From Chrysoperla carnea (Eukaryota; Arthropoda; Insecta; Neuroptera; Chrysopidae): 64,000 nt of DNA. Of this stretch, positions 28,348-45,777 are shown in pieces. Where the stretch lies: positions 100,806,368-100,870,367 of the forward strand of contig NC_058337.1 in assembly GCF_905475395.1 (NCBI RefSeq), read 5' to 3'. Under the pieces are notes generated by a model. That model was not told where the DNA came from and did not search any database. It saw only the letters and a program-made list of their open reading frames with translations. Both the position numbers and the translations under genes were made by a program. Numbering within the stretch: the first letter of the stretch is position 1; each line of letters starts with the position of its first letter.

Positions 28348-28944
28348 TGAGCATTGTGATCGAAATTCCTGTTTTAGCTATCATATTTTACTTTGCTTTA
28401 TTAATTTCCCATTCTATTTTACTTTTTGTTCTGCCTTAAGAAATTCATGTAAAATTACATTCAGCTACACAGTAATATAGTATTTATTCGAAGTCATTTT
28501 AATTGATATTAAAAAAAATTTTTCATTATCCAGTCAATTTAAACATTCGAAGGTATAAAAATTCGCACCCGGAGTTAAAGGTCACAAAAATGGATTTTTC
28601 GTGATTTTCAGCAAAACCGTAAGTTTTACCACAAAATTAGCTCTGACGAAAATTTTATATTAGATAATTAAATAAAAAAAATGTCTCAATACTTTTACGA
28701 ATACGGGTACGAATTTTTGTACCTTCACTCAAATTTTCTAAATTTAATTTGACCGGATAAATATTTCCAAATATAGCCAACCTAAACTATTCAATCGTAT
28801 AGGTAAATTACCAATCATGATTATGGCGAAATATTAAGTCTGTATTCATACTATGTCTGTAAAATGACCTGCTGCCAATTTTTTCGCTCATATCTTCTCT
28901 TCTAATATAGTCAACCAGTTGTATAACCACTCATTTAACTAATA

Positions 28945-29510
28945 GTCTAAGATCCCAATTAGGATCGACCTTCACCCATCTGTTTACCGGATGAAAGTTA
29001 TTTTTTATGAAATATAAAATGTTAACAAATATCCCTGCGATGGGTTGCCTAAAAAACTGTGGTCCAGACTACTTTTAGTGAAAATATCAAGAGTAAAATT
29101 TTTAGAAATTTTTCACTGACTTGCATACCTTACGAATTTTGATCTACTCGAAAGTAAAAGCCATAAAGAATATGCAGCAGCTATGTTGTCTGCCTTTTTT
29201 CGTTCACTATTATCGCATTTATACAAGTTGAAAATAGTAATTACGTGCATCTGTTAATTCATTGACTCGCATATCTAAATAAAGATAATTTTGTTACAAT
29301 TACGGTGGCATATGATTGACCACAAAATATTGGTCAAAAATAATGTTTACAAGCTTTCCAAGTTTTGATATTTATATTAAAAATGGTCTGGACCATATTT
29401 TTAAAGGCAACCCGTTACAGGAATATTTGTTAATATTTTACATTTCATAAAAAATAACTTTCATTCGGTAAACAGATGGGTGAAGGTCGACCCTAATTCG
29501 GATCTTGTAC
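28945..29510. mobile_element. TA-flanked element with long inverted termini
   Basis: The arms are about 130 bp each and share CGACCTTCACCCATCTGTTT with its complement, plus GGTTGCCT with AGGCAACC. GTCTAAGATCC begins the left end and the complement of GTACAAGATCC the right, each bordered by TA. The spacer of about 280 bp has no transposase frame. It is probably a Tc1/mariner-related non-autonomous element. Confidence 0.7.
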
Positions 29511-29932
29511 TATAAACAAATAAGATTAAATCACTAACGTCTCTGAAACAAAATAAATTATTAAAGCGAAAAAGTTTCGATTTACCTAATTCAAATTGTT
29601 TTTAAGCTCCAATGAATCATTTAATTATCCTTATTTGCATTTTTTAGGCTACAGAGAAAGAATTTTTAGTAAAAAACATAATGTTTTTTGAAATTTTTTG
29701 ATATGTATAAATTATAAAATAACGCGACGTAGCCTATGGCCATTTCAGTGTAAAAATAAATGAAAACAAACAATTGGCTGAGTTAATTGTTGAAATATCA
29801 TGTTTAGATTGTGTTGATTACACTGTAACATTTCAAATGCATACATGTCACACATACATAACTGATATACCCATATAATATATATTATACAATTTGAGCT
29901 CTCCCGGGTAAACAGACAACAGTTATTCATTG

Positions 29933-31503: not shown

Positions 31504-31553
<50 letters not shown>
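31504..31553. repeat. (TA)n microsatellite
   Basis: About 25 TA units end roughly 90 bp before the SecA-like start codon. In open frame it reads as Ile-Tyr repeats and is not a gene. Confidence 0.95.
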
Positions 31554-31556
<3 letters not shown>

Positions 31557-31645
31557 ATGGCACCTTACACTGATAGGCACCCACGCTATAATTCTTTTTA
31601 TAAATATATTTATTATTGTTTTAGATATAGAAAATTCTGATAAAT

Positions 31646-34600
31646 ATGAGCTTCCTAAGTATTGTTTTTTCAATCCTGCCATTCTTCCGACAACTTATGG
31701 TATGGTTTAATAAAGACACGAATGATAAGAAAATATGTAAAAAACATAAGATTGTTAAAATTTATAGTGATTGTGAAAATGAATTTATTGATGGTGAATG
31801 GGAAAATGGACAATTAAAAACAATATATACCTGTGAATTTATTTATTACAAAAGTTATAATCAACAAATAAATTACATACGAATATATGGACGTGATCGG
31901 TTAATTACATTTAATAACGGTGAATTTATTGGAGAATTTAAAAGTTTATCATCATTGGAACAAATTAATTCATTTGATACATTTGAAGAAATGAAATGTA
32001 CTATTTTGAATGCAATTGAAATTATTAAAATACATCAAGATAATCAAATATTACGCAATTATCAAGAATTAGAAGCCGTAATTACAGAAGTATTTGAAAA
32101 TACATCGAACAACATACAAAATGCTGAAGATTTATTTAATATCCTACATATAATAGCAGAAAATGAGGGAAAAGGAAATTATTCAAATCAGAATTTATTA
32201 AAAACGATTATTGAACATGAATTCATCTCAGATGGATTGAAATCAATTTGTGAAAACGTATTAAAATTAATTTTGATTCAAGGTTATTTTAATACACATG
32301 GAAATATTAATGAATTACTAATGAACAGAAAACAAATAATTAATAAATCAATTGAATTTATAATTCAAAAAAGTGTAAACGGTTTGATAATACACAAAAA
32401 TGAATTATTAAGCGCTTGTGTTGATGGTACATCATCTTTAATGATCAGCGATCTTATATCAAATCTATTAAATACTATTGATTCATTACGTATTTTATGT
32501 ATATCACGTGATGATATTGAATTATTTACATTTATATCGATATTTATTGAACAACAAAACTATCCATTAAATATAGAACGTAAAACGTATTATACGAACG
32601 TATTTAATAAATATTTGAAATATTTGTTGTTAAAATTTACACAAAATTTGAACATAATTCACTTAAAAGATAATTTTAAAAATAATGTACCATTAACAAG
32701 TAAAATATACATGCATTTATTTAAAAGTTTTATTCAATTAACTGTTGAAATTGATACCATTTTATTTGAAGAAAATAACAAATTAAATCTATTTCAAATT
32801 GATCAGATCAATAATAAAATTAATAAATTAACAAAACAATTAAAATGGCCAAAAGATTCATTCAAATATCAATTATTAGAATGCCAATGGTTTTTTATTT
32901 TTGATGATTTAATGAAACATTTTAGTCCTGAATACATTTATGCAAATCAATCTGAATTTATTTATCAATTCAAAACTATTCAATTCAAATCAAATAATAA
33001 TGATTTTGTAAGTTTAAATGAATATCAATTAATATGGTTATATATATTTGATAATACATTATCAAACATGATAATTTGTGAAGATAATGTAAATGATCAT
33101 CAATTTAATAAATTAATTCATTTATTAATTGATGGTTATATAAATTTTATCAAACAAAATCATGGAATGTATGAAACATATCGTGTTTTATTGGATAATA
33201 CTGTAAAATATATTGTAAATGTACATAATTCAATTGATTTAAACGATTTAAATGATACTTACACAAAATGTATCAATAAACAAATTGATTTTATTAATTA
33301 TACAATTCAAAATTATAATGATGATCAATCAATGAATTGTTTTACAAATTTCATTGAAATATTTAATGAATTTTGGTTGAATAAAAAACAAATTGATAAT
33401 TTGTATAAGAAATTTACATGTAATTATTTACAAAAACCATTAAAAGATGTAACAATACTTTTATTACAATTATTGGATAATATTTTATTATTAGATAGTG
33501 TATTTACAATTAATAATGACTTTATTATATTGTTAAGAACATTTAATGAATTTTCATTAAAATTAACACAAATTGAATTTAATTGGTATGTTAAAAAGAA
33601 CGAATTCATTGAATTAGAAGAATTATTAAAAGAACAAAATATAATTGAAATAGTTGATAATAAAATTACAGATGAAGACAAATGTACATACATTGTAGTT
33701 GATCCAAAACGATTTTGTGATCAATTTTCTTCTAATGAACAAATACCAAAACATATTTGCATTGATGTTATTCAAAAATTATTAAAAGTAATTATTGAAT
33801 TTATTCAAAATCAAACTCCAATGAAATTTGAAATGAAATCAAATGAATCATTGAAGTTAACAAATGCATTAATTTCATCCATTAATAAATCAATGTTTTA
33901 TTTAAATGAACAAGCTGATTATCGTGATTTTCAATTATTTTATGATGAAAATATTTATCCATTTGAAAGTGTTATCACAAATAGCCATAATTATGATGAT
34001 TTTATTAAAAGTATTGATACAATTCAAGAATCAATTGTAATTTTACGTAAACATGATGAGATCGGTATTCATGAAGCATTAAATTTATACAAATCATTCA
34101 ATCAAAATAATACTGAACATAAAACAAATTATAAAATATTAGAAAAATGTTATGAACTGTATTTTGAACAATTTAACTCATTTATAATAAATTGTAATAA
34201 TGAAAATGAAATAATTAGTGATGTTGATAAAATAATTCAAAAAGAATGTTCATCTCAAATGAAACCATTTTATCCATTGAATAAATGGACGTCAAAATTT
34301 AAGACAAATATTGTACCAAAAATATTAGCTGGTTTAAGTGCTGTTTGGTCAATGAATGTATCCAAAAATATATCAATTAACCATCAAAAATATATGAAAC
34401 CACATTGTATACAAATATTAAGTATATTACGTTTGCTAAGTGTTGACAACAATACAAATATTGTTGACAATCATCTTGCTCAAATATCAACAGGACAAGG
34501 TAAATCAATAATATTAGGTTTATTATCATTATTGTTGTCATTATTAGGATACGACATACAATTATTATGTTATAGTCAGTATTTAACACAACGAGATCAA

Positions 34601-36124
34601 AATCAATTTTATTCTTTGTTTAACAAATTTAATAAAACATCATCCATTAAATATATTACATTTGAAAGCATGGCAAATGAAATGTTAACATATAAAGTAA
34701 ATGGTATTACATATGGTATACGTGATTTAGTTAAACAGCAAATATTAAATGAAAATAATAATAAAATAATTAGTGGTGAATATGTTAAAAATAATATATC
34801 ACAAACAATATTATTAATTGATGAAGTTGATGTGTTCTTTACTGATAAATTTTATGGGAATACATATGGTCCATGTCAAACAATAAGTTTAGATGGGCTT
34901 AAAAGTATTCAAATACATTTATGGAATTTAATACAAGAAAATAATTATATCTATCACGACAGAAATATAAATTTAATAAAAAATTTAATGAATGATTATA
35001 TACAGGACACGTTAATACATGACGAAGATGAAAATGAAGATTTTTGTAAATTTTATAAAAAAATTAATTCATATAATTTATTTGGTGAAACATACACAAA
35101 TCAAAGTTTATTTGATGAACATTTGAATTTAATGATTGAAGATGCACTACTTGTACATCAATTAAATTATGATGAAGATCAATATCGTTTAGATGATGAA
35201 GGTTATATAACAATAAAGAGATGGGATGGTGAGTATACAAGGTATGCTTATAGTCAATATAAAAATATATTTCAATACTTTCGTTTAAAACAATCACATT
35301 ATGACGATAAAAATTATCAGAATTATGGTTATTTAAATATAAGGGCTGGACGTGTATCATATGCAAATTTACCAAAAGAATATCCATTAATATTGGGTGT
35401 AAGTGGTACACTAACATCATTAAATGTTCATGAAAAAAATGTTGTTGAAAATGTATATAACATTAAAAAAATGTCTATAATGCCATCTTTTTTTGGACAA
35501 TCAAATTTAAAATTTAATGAAGATGATGATTTTATAATTAAGGACGATATTGATAATTGGTTCATATCAATATTTACTAGAATTGATTATCAGAAAAACC
35601 AAGAACGTGCTATATTAGTTGTATTTGAAACAGAAACAATTTTAAATAAATTTCACGAACAATATAGCAGTAAGATTGATAATTTACAAACATTAACAAT
35701 AAATACTAAAAATAAAGAATATATAATAAATGAGTCAGGTCTATCAAGAAAGTGTACATTGATTACACGTGAAATGGGACGTGGAGTTGATTACAAATCA
35801 AGTGCTGCTGTTGAAACCCACGGCGGTGTTCATGTAATTCAAACATTTTTCTCATTGGATGTCAAAGAAGAGGCACAAATCAAGGGTAGAACAGCACGTA
35901 AGGATTTTAAAGGAACCTATGAATTAATATTATGCCGTGAACAACTTACAAAATTAAAAATTTCAAAAAATGTTGATAATAAGTTGATTCGTACGTATGC
36001 CGAAATATGTAAAGAGCGTGATCGAATTATCAATGAAACGGGTCAGCAAATTGACGCAAAAATTCGAAACGCTGAAGAGGAGCATAATTCAACAATGACA
36101 TATTTTAAATCATTTTTTCAATAA
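31646..36124 (+). CDS. Giant SecA-like ATPase protein, intronless, 1492 residues
   Basis: SecA is the bacterial ATPase that pushes proteins through SecYEG; eukaryotic relatives outside plastids have no known role that I can name. Residues 946-954 (AQISTGQGKS) are the Walker A region, 1059-1062 DEVD is the Walker B box, YLTQRDQNQF follows motif I as in SecA, LGVSGTLTSL resembles the SecA GMTGT motif, REMGRGVDYK (1375-1384) matches the TxMAGRGTDI motif, and QIKGRTARKDFKG (1411-1423) the QxxGRxGRQGD motif. All motor motifs are thus present in order, within about 500 C-terminal residues. I do not see a clear preprotein-crosslinking domain or the zinc-binding tail. The preceding 900 or so residues are Asn/Ile/Lys-rich and probably helical, without a known domain. 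The first 20 residues are hydrophobic (SFLSIVFSILPFFRQL), possibly a membrane anchor. A TAG lies in frame just upstream, so 31646 is the first Met. Base use is as AT-rich as its surroundings. No introns. Confidence 0.87.
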   Translation: MSFLSIVFSILPFFRQLMVWFNKDTNDKKICKKHKIVKIYSDCENEFIDGEWENGQLKTIYTCEFIYYKSYNQQINYIRIYGRDRLITFNNGEFIGEFKSLSSLEQINSFDTFEEMKCTILNAIEIIKIHQDNQILRNYQELEAVITEVFENTSNNIQNAEDLFNILHIIAENEGKGNYSNQNLLKTIIEHEFISDGLKSICENVLKLILIQGYFNTHGNINELLMNRKQIINKSIEFIIQKSVNGLIIHKNELLSACVDGTSSLMISDLISNLLNTIDSLRILCISRDDIELFTFISIFIEQQNYPLNIERKTYYTNVFNKYLKYLLLKFTQNLNIIHLKDNFKNNVPLTSKIYMHLFKSFIQLTVEIDTILFEENNKLNLFQIDQINNKINKLTKQLKWPKDSFKYQLLECQWFFIFDDLMKHFSPEYIYANQSEFIYQFKTIQFKSNNNDFVSLNEYQLIWLYIFDNTLSNMIICEDNVNDHQFNKLIHLLIDGYINFIKQNHGMYETYRVLLDNTVKYIVNVHNSIDLNDLNDTYTKCINKQIDFINYTIQNYNDDQSMNCFTNFIEIFNEFWLNKKQIDNLYKKFTCNYLQKPLKDVTILLLQLLDNILLLDSVFTINNDFIILLRTFNEFSLKLTQIEFNWYVKKNEFIELEELLKEQNIIEIVDNKITDEDKCTYIVVDPKRFCDQFSSNEQIPKHICIDVIQKLLKVIIEFIQNQTPMKFEMKSNESLKLTNALISSINKSMFYLNEQADYRDFQLFYDENIYPFESVITNSHNYDDFIKSIDTIQESIVILRKHDEIGIHEALNLYKSFNQNNTEHKTNYKILEKCYELYFEQFNSFIINCNNENEIISDVDKIIQKECSSQMKPFYPLNKWTSKFKTNIVPKILAGLSAVWSMNVSKNISINHQKYMKPHCIQILSILRLLSVDNNTNIVDNHLAQISTGQGKSIILGLLSLLLSLLGYDIQLLCYSQYLTQRDQNQFYSLFNKFNKTSSIKYITFESMANEMLTYKVNGITYGIRDLVKQQILNENNNKIISGEYVKNNISQTILLIDEVDVFFTDKFYGNTYGPCQTISLDGLKSIQIHLWNLIQENNYIYHDRNINLIKNLMNDYIQDTLIHDEDENEDFCKFYKKINSYNLFGETYTNQSLFDEHLNLMIEDALLVHQLNYDEDQYRLDDEGYITIKRWDGEYTRYAYSQYKNIFQYFRLKQSHYDDKNYQNYGYLNIRAGRVSYANLPKEYPLILGVSGTLTSLNVHEKNVVENVYNIKKMSIMPSFFGQSNLKFNEDDDFIIKDDIDNWFISIFTRIDYQKNQERAILVVFETETILNKFHEQYSSKIDNLQTLTINTKNKEYIINESGLSRKCTLITREMGRGVDYKSSAAVETHGGVHVIQTFFSLDVKEEAQIKGRTARKDFKGTYELILCREQLTKLKISKNVDNKLIRTYAEICKERDRIINETGQQIDAKIRNAEEEHNSTMTYFKSFFQ

Positions 36125-37183
36125 ATTAAGAATATTATTAAAATGAATGAATGTTTGTCAAATATTCTCTGCTCATTTTTATAAATTTTATCGATCAGAA
36201 TCAATTTAATGGAAGATATAAAAATAATCGATCAGCAAGAAATAATAATAATTTTAAATATCAAATAATTTTTGTAATAATGAATGATTTTTATAATTAA
36301 AGTAGGAAAATTAACAATACCTATTTTAACATAATAATTTTTTTTACGCATTGAATTTTCGAAAAGCTTCTTTAAAATTTTATTTCAAATTTACATATTT
36401 AAAAAATATTTTGCATGCGTTTTTGTGAAAGAAATATTTATAATAAATACAATTCAATATGATAAAATCAGAATAAAAAGAATTTTACTTTTTACTTTTT
36501 ATTTTCTATTTTTATTGTTTTACTTTACAATATTTCTACTTTTAATTAAGAATTATACTTTATCAAAATATACCTTAATATACCTATGCTTAACAAAAAC
36601 ACAACGTTAATATTTTTCACTTTAAAATAAGTTTACTGTTAATTTCAATTCTATAACGAGGTAACACAGCGCATACAAAATATTGAACGAATTCTGACTA
36701 GGAACAGTCATGGTTTTGTATTATTTACAAAAATTTCTGCCCAAAATATTAAATTTTTGGGATTGAATTGAGAAATTAAGGGATTGTTTAGAAAATAAAG
36801 AGTAATTAATATAAGTTTCTGCTCACAAGTGTTTGATGATCTTCGGTATTTGAGAACACATTCTAGAATTGAGACTTCTTTAGGAGTAAAAATATTGAAG
36901 TGTAAAACTTTGAAAGTAAAAAGTAGAAATTGAAGTAGAAATATTGAAAAATCGTTTTATTTAAGTGGAAAAATACTTTTTATGACATAAATTCGCATTT
37001 TGATGACAAAATCAATTTTTCATTAACATAAAAAAGAAAGTTGAATATTATAAAGACAATATATTGAATTTTAGAAATATTTTACTAATAAAAAAAATGA
37101 AAAATCAAAATTAAATGATTAATAAGATACATTTATGAATAAGTTTCTTGAATTTCGTTTTATAATATATCTATGTTATTTTT

Positions 37184-40041: not shown

Positions 40042-43000
40042 ATGAGCGTTTCAAATGATATTTATGAGGACTTAGATGAATTTGCATTAAATCTAAAACT
40101 AAACACAGTACGTAAAAACTATTATTCATATGTTTCTAAAAGTTAACCATATTTATACATACGTATTGTTTTAAATAATTTCTAGATAAATACAGAAAAA
40201 GATGAATTAGTTAAAGAGAATACTGAACTGAAAGAAAAAGTTGAAACACAATCACAAGAAATTAAAAAATTGAAGCAAGAGAACGAAAGACTTAAAAAAA
40301 ATATATCATCGTTATTTGTAACATCTAAATATATATCAACTAAAAAACATAAAAAAATTACATCATTACAGGCTGAAATCGAAAACTTAAAATTTAGACG
40401 AAGAAATACTCAAGACCAACAGTTAAGCAAGCGTCGTTTTGAAGTTGAAGATAACGAAAATTTTAATGCCAAGCGAGTAAAACGCGATCCTAACTTTCGT
40501 GAACAATCTAATGCAGAGGTCGAAGAAGTCGAGAATGAATATTGTGAAAAAAGTACACAAAACAATGCAGAAAATACTTCTCAGTCTTTTAAAGAAAATA
40601 TTCAATATCAAAACAAGTTCAAAGCTTGTAAATTAAATGATGATGATATAATTAATCCTGAAAATGATAATAATTCCGTACAACAACGAAATATTGAAGA
40701 GAAAACTTCCAAATTTGAAAATATTTATCAAAGACGTGCAAGGGAAAATCAGAAATTATTTTTGGCAGAAAATAAGCATAAAATTTCATCTAATGAAAAT
40801 TCTTGTGATAAAAACGAACATCATTTTACCACTAAAGAAGTCGTTCACAAAGAATTGCCGCTTGAGAATAATTCTAATCAAAATAATAATCTTCAACAAC
40901 GAAATATTGAACAAAAAACCTCCAAATTTGAAAATATTTATGAAAGACGTGCAAGGGAAAATCAGAAATTATTTTTGACAGAAAATAATCATAAAATCTC
41001 ATCTAATGAAAATTCGTGTGATAGTAATGAACATCATTTTATTGATAAGGAAATCGTTCACAAAGAATTTTCGCTTCAGGATAATTCTAATAAAAATAAA
41101 AATGAATTTGATCAAGAATTAAATAAGGATGAGCAATTTTATTCTGAAAATTATTCAGAAGAATCATCACGATGTAAAAACTTTCGGCAATCAGATCGAA
41201 GACATTCACCAAATCTTCGTAATGAACGCTACCCAAAGCATCGTAATAGTTACAACAATCATGATCCTAGGAGCAAATCTCGTAATCATTATTATGAAGA
41301 AGATAACGATTCAAATGATTATCTTGAAAATCATGACCAGAAAAGGCATCGAAATTATAAAGATAATTATCCAGAAAGTCGTTATCCTTATGATGAAAAA
41401 TATCGTAACTTTCGATTTAATCGTCGTGGTAGAAATCCACGAATGAATTACCACGATGATTACGAATATCCAAGAAAAGGGCCTAGAACGCCTTCCCCAG
41501 AGAATGAGAAAGAAACTTTATACAGAAATGAAAACAAACATTGGAAATTTCGAAACGAAAACACAATTGAAACATATGGTGACTACAAAAGATCCAAGAA
41601 ACACAAGCAAGAATTCGAGGACGGAATCGATGTTAATAGAAGATCTCGCATTGATCAAAATGATGATTTTATCAAATCGAAAAGTTATAGATCAAGATCG
41701 AAATCTGCACACCAGCAAGATTTCGAGGACGGAATCGAATTTAATAGAAGATCCCGCATTGATCAAAATGATGATTTTAGCAAATCGAAAAGTTATAGAT
41801 CAAGATCGAAATCTGCACACCAGCAAGAATTCGAGGACGGAATCGAATTTAATAGAAGATCTCACATTGATCAAAATGATGATTTTAGCAAATCGAAAAG
41901 TTATCTATCAAGATCGAAATCTGCACACAAGCAAGAATTCGATGACGCAATGGAATTTAATAGAAGATCTCGCATTGATCAAGATGATGATTCTAGCAAA
42001 TCAAAAAGTTATAGATCAAGATCGAAATCTGCACATTCAAGATCAAAAACATCCAGATCAAAAACTCCAAGTGATTCACATAATGATCGATTAAAAAACC
42101 GATCACGTTCAGGGTCTCGTTTTGAATTTGATAAAAGCGCTGATCAATATGATGATTCTAGCAAGCCAAACACTTCTAGATCAAGATCGAAATCTATAAA
42201 TTCAAGATCAAAAAGATCCAGATCTAAAACTCCAGGTAAAACAACTAGCGAATCACTCGCTGATCGATTGAAACGGTCACGATCAAGATCTCGTTCTGAA
42301 TTTGATAATAATACAGAAAATCGAGAAGTCGGACAGTACGATTTCCATCAAAGCGAGTTTTTGGAATATGAAAATATTAATAAAAAGAAGCTTGAAACAC
42401 GTAAAATTGATTTGGATAGTTATAGAAAACGGAAAAACGAAATTCATAATGAAATCGAAAATTGTACACCGAAATCGATTGAAGATAGTAATATTGATAA
42501 AAATATAGAAACATATTTCGAAGTAAACCAACAATCAGAGATAGAATCAAATTCACAAAATAATAAAAAATCAACTCAAAATTCTTCAAGTTCAGAGTAT
42601 AATTTTGGCAAGAATAGTATCGTGAATGAGTTAGCAAGCAGTTTAACCGCACAAAATGTACTTAAAGAAAGGGATATTATGAAAATTATCTATGATGATG
42701 AAGACTTTGTTGAAATTATTGGTAGTGTAAAAAATAGCATCGCCGAAACGGCTTCTCCGAACGAATCTCCGAACGAAAAACAAGATATAGTCGCAAATGA
42801 TTTTGATACCGAAAAATCATTAAGTAATGAAAATCAATCAGAAAGAAAACTTGAAGAAAAGAATAATAAAGAATTAAATGAAAGAAGTCAACATCAATCA
42901 GAGCTAATCGGGAAAGACAATGATAGTACAACAAATGACAAAAATGATACAAATTACCCGTTATCTTTATCTAATTTAGAGAAAGTTCAAAAAATTTCAA

Positions 43001-45777
43001 GCGTAAGCTTACCTTCTGAGGAAACAGCTTTAACTAGTGACTGCTTTGAGAATAAGAAAAATCTAGAAGAAAGTCATTCAAAAAATACTGATACACTCAA
43101 AAATAAAATGAGTAGTGAAATTAATATAAATGAAGTCGCTAATATTCCTAAGAAAAGTCAGATCATTTCAGAAATAATCGATGAGACTATAGTTAACGTA
43201 GAAGAAACTACTAATATCAAGGAAAACAATCAGCCTATGTTAGAAATTATAAATTTAGATGTTGATACCGAAGATGAAATCTTTATCAACGATTTAAGTG
43301 ACTCTGTTTCAAAAGAGCCTTTGAATATTAGTACTGAGCAAGAAAAAAAAGAAGTTAATTCGATTAATAATAAAGTCGATCATTCTTTGGGAAACATAAT
43401 GGACGAAATAAATTATAAAATGATTGACAATAAAAGTACTTTCAATGAAAAAGAAAACGGTGAAAAATTTGAAAACGTGCCAAATGAAAAAACAACTGTA
43501 AACGTTAAGCAGAATAAAGTAAAAATAATTCGACGTAAATATCGAAAATCTCCCCGAAAATCAATAGAAAATATTACAGATAAATTACGAAATAAAGAAA
43601 AATTGAATGACATTGAAAATAATTTGGAAGAAAATAAAACTAACAATAACAGGTCTGACGATACCAAAAATGAAAGTATAAGCACCAAAAATAAATTGCC
43701 AGAAAATATAACTGTTGAAAATAGAATGAGTAATAATCCTGAAATATCTGAAGATATCGTCAGTACGCAGGAAAGTAATATTAATAAAAACATGGGAAGT
43801 AGTTCAACACTACTCCCAAATACCAAAGAAAGTGATCAAAATATTGAAAATAAGATGGTTTCTCCAATTAAAGATGATTTAGAGAACTTTATGTCGATGT
43901 TGTTTCAAGCGTCGCCAGTTAAACAATCAGGCACCGAATCTGCCTCGAAGAGTGCTGAAAATATTACCGAAAATTCTTTACCTGAAATATTATCAGAAGT
44001 TTCTGAAAATAAATTTCAAGACAAGAAAAAAGCATCTTCTTCTAAGCAAACATCAAACGTCAAGAAAAATATCTCGAAGAAAATTGATAAAGGCAAGCAT
44101 AAATCTCCTTCCAAGAATAAAAAAGTTTTAGAAAAGTTGATTAAAACTAAAGATGTTCAGGAAAAAGAAATGTCGAGTGATAGAGAGGAGATCATATTAT
44201 CAAATTCTAATAAAAATACTCTTAAAAGATCTCGCGTTCCAGATAAAAACGTGCTACAAAATTCAACCACCAAAACCAAAGAAACCCAGCAACAAAAATT
44301 ACCTTCACATTCTTCGAGAGGAAGAAGTAAATCACTAAGTCTAAAGACGAACACAGAATCTGTTCGAGAGGAAAATAATTCGTTGGACAAAGATAAACAA
44401 GTGTTAGAAAATGCATCCGCTTCAATCAAAGAAAAAGAAGAAAAAATACCTCCAAACTCTGTTGAAATGACAGATATTTGTCACCAGGAAACAAATGTAA
44501 ACTCCGATAAAATAAGTCAAATTTCTGAAGTAACAAAAAGAAATGTAGAAAATAAGTCGTCAAATTCGAAGAATAGGGTAAGACCTATTAAAGAAAGAAG
44601 AAAATCTTCCATTAGAGATAAACAAGTTTTAGAAAATGAACCCGCTTTAACTAAAGAAAAAATTCCCTCAACGTCTATTGAAAAACCAAATTCTGCTGAA
44701 ATGAAACAGATTTGCTCTCCGGAAACAAACGTGCACTCCAATAAAACAAGCCAAACTTCTGAAGAAAGCAACTTGAACGGAAATGCTGGGGAAACTTCAA
44801 CAACAGAATCTATTGCAGAAAAAAATAAATCTTCCATTAAAGATAAACAAGTTTTAGAAAATGTAAATGCTTTAACCAAAGAAAAAATATCTTCAGTTTC
44901 TATCGATTCATTGAACTCGACTGAAATCAAAGATATTTGCTTTGAGGAAAGTAGCAAAGTAACCAGCTTAAAAGAAAATGTCGTGAAAATAACAAAGACA
45001 GAATCTATTTCAGAGAAAAATAAATTTTCCATTAAAGATAAACAAGTGTTAGAAAATGTAAATGCTTTAACCAAAGAGAAACAAGAGGAAAAAATATCTT
45101 CAATTTCTATGGATTCATTAAACTCTTCTGAAATGAAAGAGATATGTTACGGGGAAACAAATGTGTCCTCAGATAAAATGAGTCAATCTTCTGAAATTAT
45201 AAGCTCAAAAGAAAATGTCAAGACAACAGTAGAAAAACCACTTTCAAACTCTATTGAAACACTAAGTTCTACTAAAACGAGCGAAATTTATCGGAAAGAA
45301 ACAAACGTACCTGAAATAACAAGTGCAAAAGGTAACTTCGAGACCACAGTAGAAGCTAATCAGGCATCATTAAAAATACCAGCGGATGATGAATTTACAT
45401 TCTTAATTGATGCGTCCATATCAGTAATGAATGAACCTGTTTCGAATAACTCACAACATCGGCGCAAATCTTTTGACGAAAACGTGGAAATATTAAAGAA
45501 TAATTTAATAAGTGAATTAGAAAAAGTGGGTAGTACCAGTAATAATACTTGTGGCTCAAATCAAAGTACTTCATCAATAAACAGTGATGTAAATAATTCC
45601 AATAGTGTAAATAACTCAAACAGTTTAAATGATTCAGAGAATGTAAATAAAAACCCAAAAAGTAATAGTGCAAATCATGAACTAGTACCATTAAAAAATA
45701 AACATTCTGTATATAGTCGTGAAGTAATCAACGAAAATAAAATACGAATTGTCGTGAAACGTAATCGAAGAAGATAA
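40042..45777 (+). CDS. FLASH/CASP8AP2-like protein with internal repeats, two exons
   Basis: FLASH works in histone locus bodies, where its N-terminal part binds Lsm11 of U7 snRNP to help cut histone pre-mRNA. Exons 40042-40107 and 40186-45777 give 1885 residues. Residues 5-12 (NDIYEDLD) resemble the N-terminal acidic DIY motif. Then a coiled coil leads into ENERLKKNISSL, very like the vertebrate ENQSLKKNISAL, followed by KKITSLQAEIENL. The rest is low complexity: a two-copy 71-residue repeat (188-329), four 36-residue RS-type repeats (497-640) carrying SKSYRSRSKSAH, then a Lys/Glu/Ser-rich region with DKQVLEN repeats. Ends in a basic IVVKRNRRR. The vertebrate C-terminal SANT-like domain is not visible. 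RS repeats could instead suggest a splicing-related protein, so the identity rests on the first 100 residues. Antisense frames across it are shadows. Confidence 0.6.
40681..41106 (+). repeat. Two-copy 213-bp coding repeat in the FLASH-like gene
   Basis: Copies at 40681-40893 and 40894-41106 encode 71 residues each, opening QQRNIEEKTSKFENIYQRRA and QQRNIEQKTSKFENIYERRA. They are in frame and closely similar, which implies an in-frame tandem duplication. Confidence 0.85.
41608..42039 (+). repeat. Four-copy 108-bp coding minisatellite in the FLASH-like gene
   Basis: Units start at 41608, 41716, 41824 and 41932, exactly 108 bp apart, each encoding 36 residues such as QEFEDGIEFNRRSRIDQNDD followed by SKSYRSRSKSAH. 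The copies differ at only a few sites. Further SRSK runs follow to about 42240. Confidence 0.95.
44392..45150 (+). repeat. Degenerate DKQVLEN coding repeats in the FLASH-like gene
   Basis: The motif DKQVLEN starts at 44392, 44617, 44842 and 45037, giving spacings of 225, 225 and 195 bp. Each is followed by an Ala-Leu-Thr-Lys-Glu-Lys-type stretch and a short acidic cysteine-containing segment (for example MKEICYGETNV). A more decayed copy may lie near 44250. Confidence 0.8.

What the first reader, a model, noticed from the sequence alone, without database searches (positions are those of the whole stretch)
31646..36124. Intronless 1492-residue protein with a complete SecA-type motor in an insect context
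Seen: Walker A TGQGKS, DEVD box, SGT motif, REMGRGVDYK and QIKGRTAR in the SecA order, in one frame without a stop for 4.5 kb. Known: animals lack a Sec translocase that uses SecA. Inferred: an old gene transfer from a bacterium followed by adaptation to host base composition, and a new role, because the preprotein-binding and zinc tail regions are not recognisable and a novel helical region of about 900 residues has been added in front. The intact long frame in such AT-rich DNA argues for selection. What it moves or remodels is unknown.
Basis: partly seen in the sequence, partly recalled or inferred. Interest (0 to 1): 0.8.

Follow-up and report, generated by a model that had tools for sequence, protein, structure and literature searches.

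The report
Insect SecA-like motor, shared with Wolbachia
A stretch of insect-type DNA carries an intact, apparently intron-free gene for a large motor protein related to the bacterial protein-export motor SecA; it fits a little-studied gene family, noticed in 2013, that insects share with their symbiont Wolbachia, and its job is still unknown.

Summary
In detail: 31646-36124 (+) is one open frame of 1492 codons with all SecA-order motifs in its last 600 residues; chance is excluded (log10 P about -57 to -68). The front 840 residues are not an insect addition: a Wolbachia genome (G622) encodes a collinear homologue in two broken pieces, 34% and 46% identical; the front part alone scores 250 bits against at most 24.3 for 50 shuffles. 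In G622 it sits beside a second, giant SecA-like gene, then mutL, a Wmk-family regulator and a radC-like frame. This matches gene wBol1_1091 (4488 nt), reported in 2013 with full-length mosquito homologues and proposed to have moved from eukaryote to Wolbachia (PMC3639933). So this is most likely a new member of a known insect/Wolbachia family. Not found in my paper searches: its motor forms a 100/100-supported clade with rare, very large proteins of Chlamydiota- and Margulisbacteria-group genomes, where a P-loop domain and long helical stretch precede the same motor. Most likely it is a SecY-independent, ATP-driven polypeptide remodeller; substrate and role are inferred, not shown.

The parts
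31646..36124 (+). single-frame gene for a 1492-residue SecA-motor protein
   Evidence: homologue in Wolbachia G622
31646..31774 (+). residues 1-43, outside the alignment with the Wolbachia copy; residues 3-21 hydrophobic, a possible insect-specific leader or anchor
   Evidence: BLAST alignment starts at residue 44; Kyte-Doolittle 19-mean 1.72 at residues 3-21
31775..34300 (+). residues 44-885, mostly helical front region shared with the Wolbachia copy
   Evidence: 250 bits, E 4.5e-73, 50 shuffles at most 24.3 bits; helices only from an unusable model, pLDDT 34
34301..35965 (+). residues 886-1440, SecA-type two-lobed ATPase motor (ends set by me from the alignments)
   Evidence: Foldseek ranks 1-34 all SecA/SecA2
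34490..34507 (+). Walker A TGQGKS (motif I)
   Evidence: aligned with SecA TGEGKT
34820..34831 (+). DEVD box (motif II), followed by the subfamily mark VFF...FYG
35402..35413 (+). SGTL (motif III)
35768..35797 (+). REMGRGVDYK (motif V)
35876..35899 (+). QIKGRTAR (motif VI)
35966..36121 (+). residues 1441-1492, one predicted long helix; no SecA scaffold/wing or zinc tail recognised
   Evidence: (low-confidence model)

Best explanation
This is most likely an insect member of the known family of about 1.5k-residue SecA-domain genes that insects share with some Wolbachia (wBol1_1091 type). It is intact and, by its open frame, selected. Shown: collinearity with a Wolbachia copy from residue 44 to the end, a complete set of SecA-order motor motifs, no recognisable SecA parts beyond the motor. 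Inferred: the motor hydrolyses ATP; the long front binds a partner or client; strokes of the two lobes pull or remodel a polypeptide in the insect cytosol without a SecY channel, because the SecA parts that dock to SecY and push the chain (recalled biology) are missing. Also inferred, weakly: the role is in dealings with intracellular microbes, because the gene occurs in insects, in Wolbachia beside prophage genes, and its motor in other host-associated bacterial groups. My separate odds: family identity 0.93; polypeptide remodelling motor 0.4; role against or with symbionts 0.25.
For: Collinear homologue in G622: 588 bits over residues 44-1283 (34%) and 189 bits over 1282-1492 (46%). G622 is Wolbachia: recalled Wolbachia 16S primers match with 1 and 0 mismatches, against 6-8 and 3-7 in the 8 other Rickettsiales 16S loci compared; its neighbouring MutL is 91.9% and its regulator 96.5% identical to WO phage of wVitA, and the regulator passes the NCBIfam Wmk cut-off. 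Length and tandem neighbour agree with wBol1_1091/1092 (4488 and 11,829 nt): insect 4479 bp; in G622 a second SecA-like gene in two pieces follows, L146:225-12289. Motor motifs and SecA profile. Motor clade: 7 of 7 rows together at 100/100 among 55; insect with G622 at 100/99. Selection: of 40 columns invariant in six outgroup motors (part before the G622 break) the insect keeps 32, G622 also 32; under neutral drift even 0.1 changes per site would bring about 45 stops, none is seen; four-fold sites against G622 are saturated (20 of 65 equal, 0.308 against 0.376 expected).
Against: The motor model is weak (pLDDT 61, pTM 0.47, TM to SecA 0.21-0.32) and the front model unusable. No test of ATPase activity, client or expression exists here. 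In Wolbachia the same gene type looks neutral (omega 0.945) and is broken in G622, so it is not needed everywhere. The saturation argument covers both branches together, not the insect branch alone. Codon choice differs from neighbouring frames (CGT 0.53 against 0.19, CCA 0.94 against 0.59), which fits a recently arrived gene as well as an old one; by summed distance the difference is modest (5.75, against about 4.7 between halves of either set; to the Wolbachia genes 8.1). Both trees flag the insect row for odd letter make-up, and warns of long branches.
Confidence: 0.6

Rival explanations
1. A travelling passenger gene: it moves between insects, Wolbachia prophage regions and other microbes and has no lasting host function; the insect copy is intact only because it arrived fairly recently from another AT-rich genome.
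For: Codon choice unlike neighbouring frames and lower GC3, 0.135 against 0.218; wBol1_1091 near-neutral between two Wolbachia strains; broken in G622; scattered occurrence, 1 of 261 Rickettsiales genomes at E 1e-55.
Against: No stop in 1492 codons although four-fold sites are saturated against G622; 32 of 40 deep-invariant motor columns kept; no donor with this composition is known to me.
Confidence: 0.2
2. A nucleic-acid motor: an SF2 enzyme that unwinds or moves on RNA, for example in antiviral or symbiont RNA sensing.
For: The family profile also reaches the DEAD-box RNA helicase MSS116 (E 4e-5), and after rank 34 Foldseek lists DRH-1, MDA5 and eIF4A among its rows.
Against: SecA entries lead by far (E 6.3e-31; Foldseek ranks 1-34), and the alignment runs on through the SecA stretch between motifs II and III.
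Confidence: 0.12
3. Recent insertion of Wolbachia DNA, or a bacterial contaminant contig.
For: The closest homologue held is in Wolbachia.
Against: Only 34-46% identity; GC3 0.135 against 0.244 in the G622 gene; animal-type genes and a hAT fragment upstream on the same 64 kb; none of five G622 neighbour proteins (MutL, Wmk-type, RadC-like, MreB, MnmA) matches the window at E <= 0.01. Evidence on the right side is thin.
Confidence: 0.03
4. A true Sec translocase ATPase of an organelle.
For: Complete SecA motor motifs.
Against: No preprotein-binding, scaffold/wing or zinc-tail family detected at E <= 1; profile similarity ends at SecA residue about 548.
Confidence: 0.03

Closest known systems
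wBol1_1091-type SecA-domain genes of mosquitoes and Wolbachia (PMC3639933; wAlbB-Uju L3551_05645 in PMC9680635)
   Same: about 1.5k residues, one frame, SecA domain in the 3' half, front half shared between insect and Wolbachia, tandem giant SecA-like gene in Wolbachia (seen in G622)
   Different: this copy lies in an AT-rich insect-type window (about 29% GC); direct alignment to the published sequences could not be made here
P-loop-helical-SecA motor proteins of Chlamydiota- and Margulisbacteria-group genomes (L006, L007, L124-L127)
   Same: same motor clade (100/100), DEVD[VI]FF...FYG type mark, motor at or near the C-terminal end after a long stretch
   Different: the three whole frames (L006, L007, L124) carry a GxxGxGKST domain in front, the other three are cut at contig ends; L007 also has a vWA-like end by eye; their helical stretch shows no detectable similarity to the insect/Wolbachia front (hhalign probability 0.8% or less, controls 98-99%)
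Bacterial SecA / SecA2 translocase ATPases
   Same: motifs I, II, III, V, VI in order; collinear alignment through both lobes
   Different: 11-17% identity in Foldseek ranks 1-34, no recognised preprotein-binding, scaffold/wing or zinc tail, long front region
Giant SecA-like proteins of Rickettsiales, Legionella and others (L001-L005 and more)
   Same: SecA motor inside very large bacterial proteins
   Different: separate from this clade; mostly DEVD[SN][ML]; motor often in mid-protein, with HEAT (L003) or LysM (L002) parts

Membership tests
wBol1_1091-type insect/Wolbachia SecA-domain family | length about 4.49 kb in one open frame | tested here: met
   4479 bp with stop, no stop inside; published 4488 and 4491 nt. 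Absence of introns in the transcript was not testable
wBol1_1091-type insect/Wolbachia SecA-domain family | SecA domain in the 3' half | tested here: met
   residues 915-1067 by Pfam, 939-1432 by phmmer
wBol1_1091-type insect/Wolbachia SecA-domain family | 5' half homologous between insect and Wolbachia | tested here: met
   250 bits over residues 44-854 with G622
wBol1_1091-type insect/Wolbachia SecA-domain family | in Wolbachia, followed by a giant SecA-like gene | tested here: met
   L146:225-12289 in two pieces; concerns G622, not the window
wBol1_1091-type insect/Wolbachia SecA-domain family | clusters with wBol1_1091 and mosquito proteins in a tree | not testable with these tools
   I found no way to those sequences in the collections offered
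Canonical SecA translocase ATPase | two-lobed motor with SecA-order motifs | tested here: met
Canonical SecA translocase ATPase | preprotein-binding domain family | tested here: not met
   no Pfam hit at E <= 1, though about 190 residues lie between motifs II and III and the profile aligns through them
Canonical SecA translocase ATPase | scaffold/wing domain and zinc tail | tested here: not met
   no Pfam hit; only 52 residues follow residue 1440
P-loop-helical-SecA motor proteins | motor clade and DEVD[VI]FF mark | tested here: met
   100/100 in 55-row tree, alignment; within the family L125 reads DEVDILF and L127 DEVDVFG
P-loop-helical-SecA motor proteins | GxxxxGK[ST] domain in front | tested here: not met
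   no such motif in P0001
P-loop-helical-SecA motor proteins | homologous helical stretch | tested here: not met
   hhalign probability 0.6% or less with one row, 0.8% or less with two rows, positive controls 98.3 and 99.0%
Known anti-phage defence or phage families | match to PADLOC or PHROGs models | tested here: not met
   no family at E <= 0.01 for P0001

The most novel reading that the evidence does not exclude
One lineage of SecA-derived, SecY-free motors moves as whole genes between insects and prophage-linked regions of Wolbachia, with its motor also fused behind P-loop, GTPase-like domains in rare giant proteins of other host-associated bacteria; the insect copy has been kept as a cytosolic, ATP-driven polypeptide remodeller that acts on microbial or symbiont proteins, making it an animal immunity or symbiosis factor of a kind not yet described.
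Probability: 0.2. Interest if true: 0.8.

Novelty: new member of a known kind. Interest (0 to 1): 0.42.

Why it matters
SecA is a textbook motor of bacteria and plastids, yet insects keep SecA-motor genes for which the two papers I saw report no functional test in the parts I read. If the insect copies are active, they are a ready system for asking how a translocation motor works without its channel, and why such genes pass between insects and a Wolbachia region that also carries a Wmk-family regulator. The bacterial relatives with a P-loop domain give a comparative handle on the motor beyond the eukaryotic hits named in 2013, when no close bacterial match was known.

Tried and rejected
Single-protein scan of viral contigs found no relative; alignment scans found only two giant SecA-like loci, the same two contigs twice. 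No phage record matches P0001 at E 1e-3; no plasmid matches its first 900 residues (E 0.01) or the first G622 piece (E 1e-3). A P-loop domain in an upstream exon was not pursued: no GxxxxGK[ST] motif occurs in P0001, and no listed frame between 30000 and 31630 exceeds 120 codons; small exons are not excluded. Transposon or virus ends: of 44 inverted-repeat pairs 25 were shown; one pair brackets the gene (35 nt, 74%, 29612-29646 with 37089-37123), which I take for chance in AT-rich DNA but did not test. A second SecA-like copy in the window: only matches at E 7 or worse; the first piece of the G622 giant matches only the gene itself. Homology of the front to the helical stretch of the P-loop family: not found; the best two-row hit, though not significant, is in register just before the motor. 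AlphaFold of the front without relatives: useless. PADLOC gave one weak P-loop match for L124 only. The empty Bacteroidota search had no positive control of its own; the same profile finds its own members elsewhere. The G622 16S also fits recalled Ehrlichia-type primers with 1 and 2 mismatches, so the WO-phage matches carry the naming.

Literature: 10 of 10 searches used. The listing led to PMC9680635, and its reference 35 to PMC3639933. In some searches I noticed no paper on the P-loop-SecA family; this covers this library and the listed rows only. Seen: PMC3639933 passages and the whole of section 9; PMC9680635 passages and reference list parts 1-2; PMC4256840, PMC8195603 and PMC3482391 passages only; PMC4452313 abstract and passages. 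Others: listing only.

Rows dropped: of 129 motor hits, 108 were kept (2 skipped for length, 19 dropped as repeats or contained), and 55 of these went into the tree; one listed name found no row. One search used 18 rows and only the first piece of G622.
Full report
1. What is there. The stretch 31646-36124 (+) is one open frame of 1492 codons. The other five frames over it hold 96 to 248 stops, and chance at the local base make-up is about 10^-68. Pfam reports only SecA_DEAD, residues 915-1067, E 1.2e-8. phmmer against the PDB puts SecA first, residues 939-1432, E 1.3e-8. A profile of the motor family (alignment A4, window row included) aligns without a break to SecA residues 83-548, E 6.3e-31, through motifs I to VI and the stretch between motifs II and III; only then come DEAD-box RNA helicases, E 4e-5. 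The AlphaFold2 motor model is weak (pLDDT 61), but Foldseek's first 34 PDB matches are all SecA or SecA2, at low TM-scores of 0.21-0.32. The motifs sit at the coordinates. Nothing like the SecA preprotein-binding, scaffold/wing or zinc-tail families is reported at E <= 1.

2. Surroundings. To the left lie a lebercilin-domain frame, a caspase whose best PDB match is Caspase Nc (the Drosophila initiator caspase, recalled), a hAT transposase fragment and a polyprenyl synthetase exon. To the right lie an 1863-codon Ser/Arg-rich frame without Pfam match and a DoxX-like match below the cut-off. This is animal and by the caspase probably insect DNA, with firm evidence on the left side only. The gene is poorer in GC (0.227; third positions 0.135) than neighbouring frames (third positions 0.218) and differs in codon choice, moderately when set against the scatter between halves of each set. 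I cannot name the insect; no genome is held.

3. Bacterial relatives of the motor. A genome-contig scan gave 59 loci; two stood out, L006 (E 1e-53) and L007 (3e-45), the next at 1e-22. Profile searches found the same motor type in 4 of 232 genomes of the Chlamydiota group (E below 1e-119, next 6.7e-37; the profile held L007), 2 of 74 of the Margulisbacteria group (both, G395 and L006's G001, were rows of the profile), 1 of 261 Rickettsiales, 0 of 241 of one Bacteroidota order, and 0 of 143 Legionellales at E 1e-55 (best 1.1e-42). Three frames are whole: L006 2688, L124 3323 and L007 3010 residues; the frames of 599, 1596 and 1706 residues run into contig ends. L006, L124 and L126 share 25-27% identity over 1762 to 2140 alignment columns through the P-loop domain, helical stretch and motor (L126 begins inside the P-loop domain), and L125 matches them in two pieces at 23-31%. 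The P-loop motif GxxGxGKST is seen in the three whole frames, with weak GTPase-type matches below Pfam's cut-offs. In a 55-row motor tree the insect and six bacterial motors form one clade, 100/100, apart from canonical SecA, secondary SecA and the giant SecA-like proteins (the tool warns of long branches). A smaller tree with a mixture model keeps the clade, now with G622, at 100/100.

4. The decisive relative. The one Rickettsiales genome, G622, encodes a collinear homologue of the insect protein from residue 44 to the end, in two pieces because its frame is broken: 588 bits, 34% over 44-1283, and 189 bits, 46% over 1282-1492. The front region alone (1-880) scores 250 bits, against at most 24.3 for 50 shuffled versions. 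So the front region was not added in the insect. Insect and G622 motors pair at 100/99 with 52% identity and equal branches, 0.55 and 0.53. Only 1 of 67 genomes of G622's family carries it at E 1e-25. The shared front shows no detectable kinship to the helical stretch of the P-loop family (hhalign 0.8% or less; controls 98.3 and 99.0%).

5. G622 is Wolbachia. Its 16S carries both recalled Wolbachia primer sites with 1 and 0 mismatches; the eight other Rickettsiales 16S loci show 6-8 and 3-7. Behind the homologue lies a second SecA-like gene, also in two pieces, then mutL, a Wmk-family regulator above the NCBIfam cut-off, and a radC-like frame cut by the locus end and below the cut-off. The MutL is 91.9% and the regulator 96.5% identical to WO phage of wVitA.

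6. Literature. Duplouy et al. 2013 (PMC3639933, section 9 read) describe such a pair in Wolbachia wBol1-b: wBol1_1091 (4488 nt), full-length matches only to Culex and Aedes proteins, SecA part also to Polysphondylium, Tetrahymena and Salpingoeca; and wBol1_1092 (11,829 nt). They judged most annotated introns spurious, favoured transfer from eukaryotes to Wolbachia, and measured omega 0.945 for 1091 and 0.266 for 1092. A 2022 paper (PMC9680635, passages) reports such a pair in wAlbB-Uju, again branching among arthropod genes. A Legionella paper lists a SecA DEAD-like gene, lfa2470, as taken from eukaryotes (PMC4256840, passages). Hence the window gene is most likely a new member of a known family. 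The 2013 paper had no close bacterial match; section 3 supplies some for the motor.

7. Selection. Against G622, four-fold sites at shared residues are saturated (20 of 65 equal; 0.376 expected from make-up), yet 439 of 1180 aligned residues are equal. Of 40 columns invariant in six outgroup motors, the insect keeps 32 and G622 32; of 89 columns with at least five of six equal, 62 and 60 (motor before the G622 break only). Neutral drift of 0.1 changes per site would already bring about 45 stops. This argues for selection over the history of the insect copy but does not isolate the insect branch. The odd codon choice and the near-neutral Wolbachia copies leave room for a travelling passenger gene.

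8. Mechanism. Shown: intact motor motifs and SecA-type motor sequence. Inferred from SecA biology (recalled): without the scaffold, two-helix finger and zinc tail it should not drive chains through SecY; with a long front it may hold a client or partner while the two lobes cycle ATP and remodel a polypeptide. The link to symbionts rests on where the genes occur, not on any test; that Chlamydiota and these other groups live in or with hosts is recalled.

9. Verdict. Observation confirmed; interpretation partly supported; known family, new member, with an interesting wider bacterial clade. Interest 0.42.

Noticed in passing
L131:5578-10121 and L146:225-16001 (G622): In a Wolbachia genome the eukaryote-like SecA pair, both genes broken, lies directly beside mutL and a Wmk-family regulator of WO-phage type and a radC-like frame.
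   Followed up: yes
L006:1746-9809, L124:2427-12395, L125:1-4788, L126:1-5118: Coherent family of very large bacterial proteins: P-loop (GTPase-like) domain, about 900-1000 further residues, C-terminal SecA motor; L125 and L126 are cut at contig ends.
   Followed up: partly
L007:1641-10670: 3010-residue member with P-loop near the front and, by eye, a vWA-like end (DATGSM) behind the SecA motor; Pfam did not report the vWA part.
   Followed up: no
L001-L005, L014, L022, L030, L055: Giant SecA-like proteins of about 1.6 to 4.5k residues in Rickettsiales, a Legionella plasmid, Bacteroidota, Chlamydiota and two IMG/VR contigs; L003 with HEAT, L002 with LysM matches.
   Followed up: partly
L006: The MAG titled Actinomycetota falls in the same phylum group as a MAG titled Margulisiibacteriota in the genome collection, so its record title is probably wrong.
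   Followed up: no
window 31504-31554: A TA repeat of about 50 bases ends some 90 bases before the start codon; a TTTTAG that could be a 3' splice site of a leader intron lies at about 31619-31624.
   Followed up: no
window 31646-31774: Residues 1-43 lie outside the alignment with the Wolbachia copy and begin with a hydrophobic stretch, a possible leader or anchor gained in the insect.
   Followed up: partly
window 31646-36124: Codon choice (CGT 0.53, CCA 0.94, ACA 0.71, TCA 0.52) unlike neighbouring frames and unlike the Wolbachia copy; unexplained.
   Followed up: partly
window 40186-45777: 1863-codon single frame, rich in Ser, Arg, Asn, Glu, with coiled-coil-like start by eye; no Pfam match at E 0.01.
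   Followed up: no
window 28942-29513: Inverted repeat with 149-nt arms, 87% complementary, 274 nt apart.
   Followed up: no
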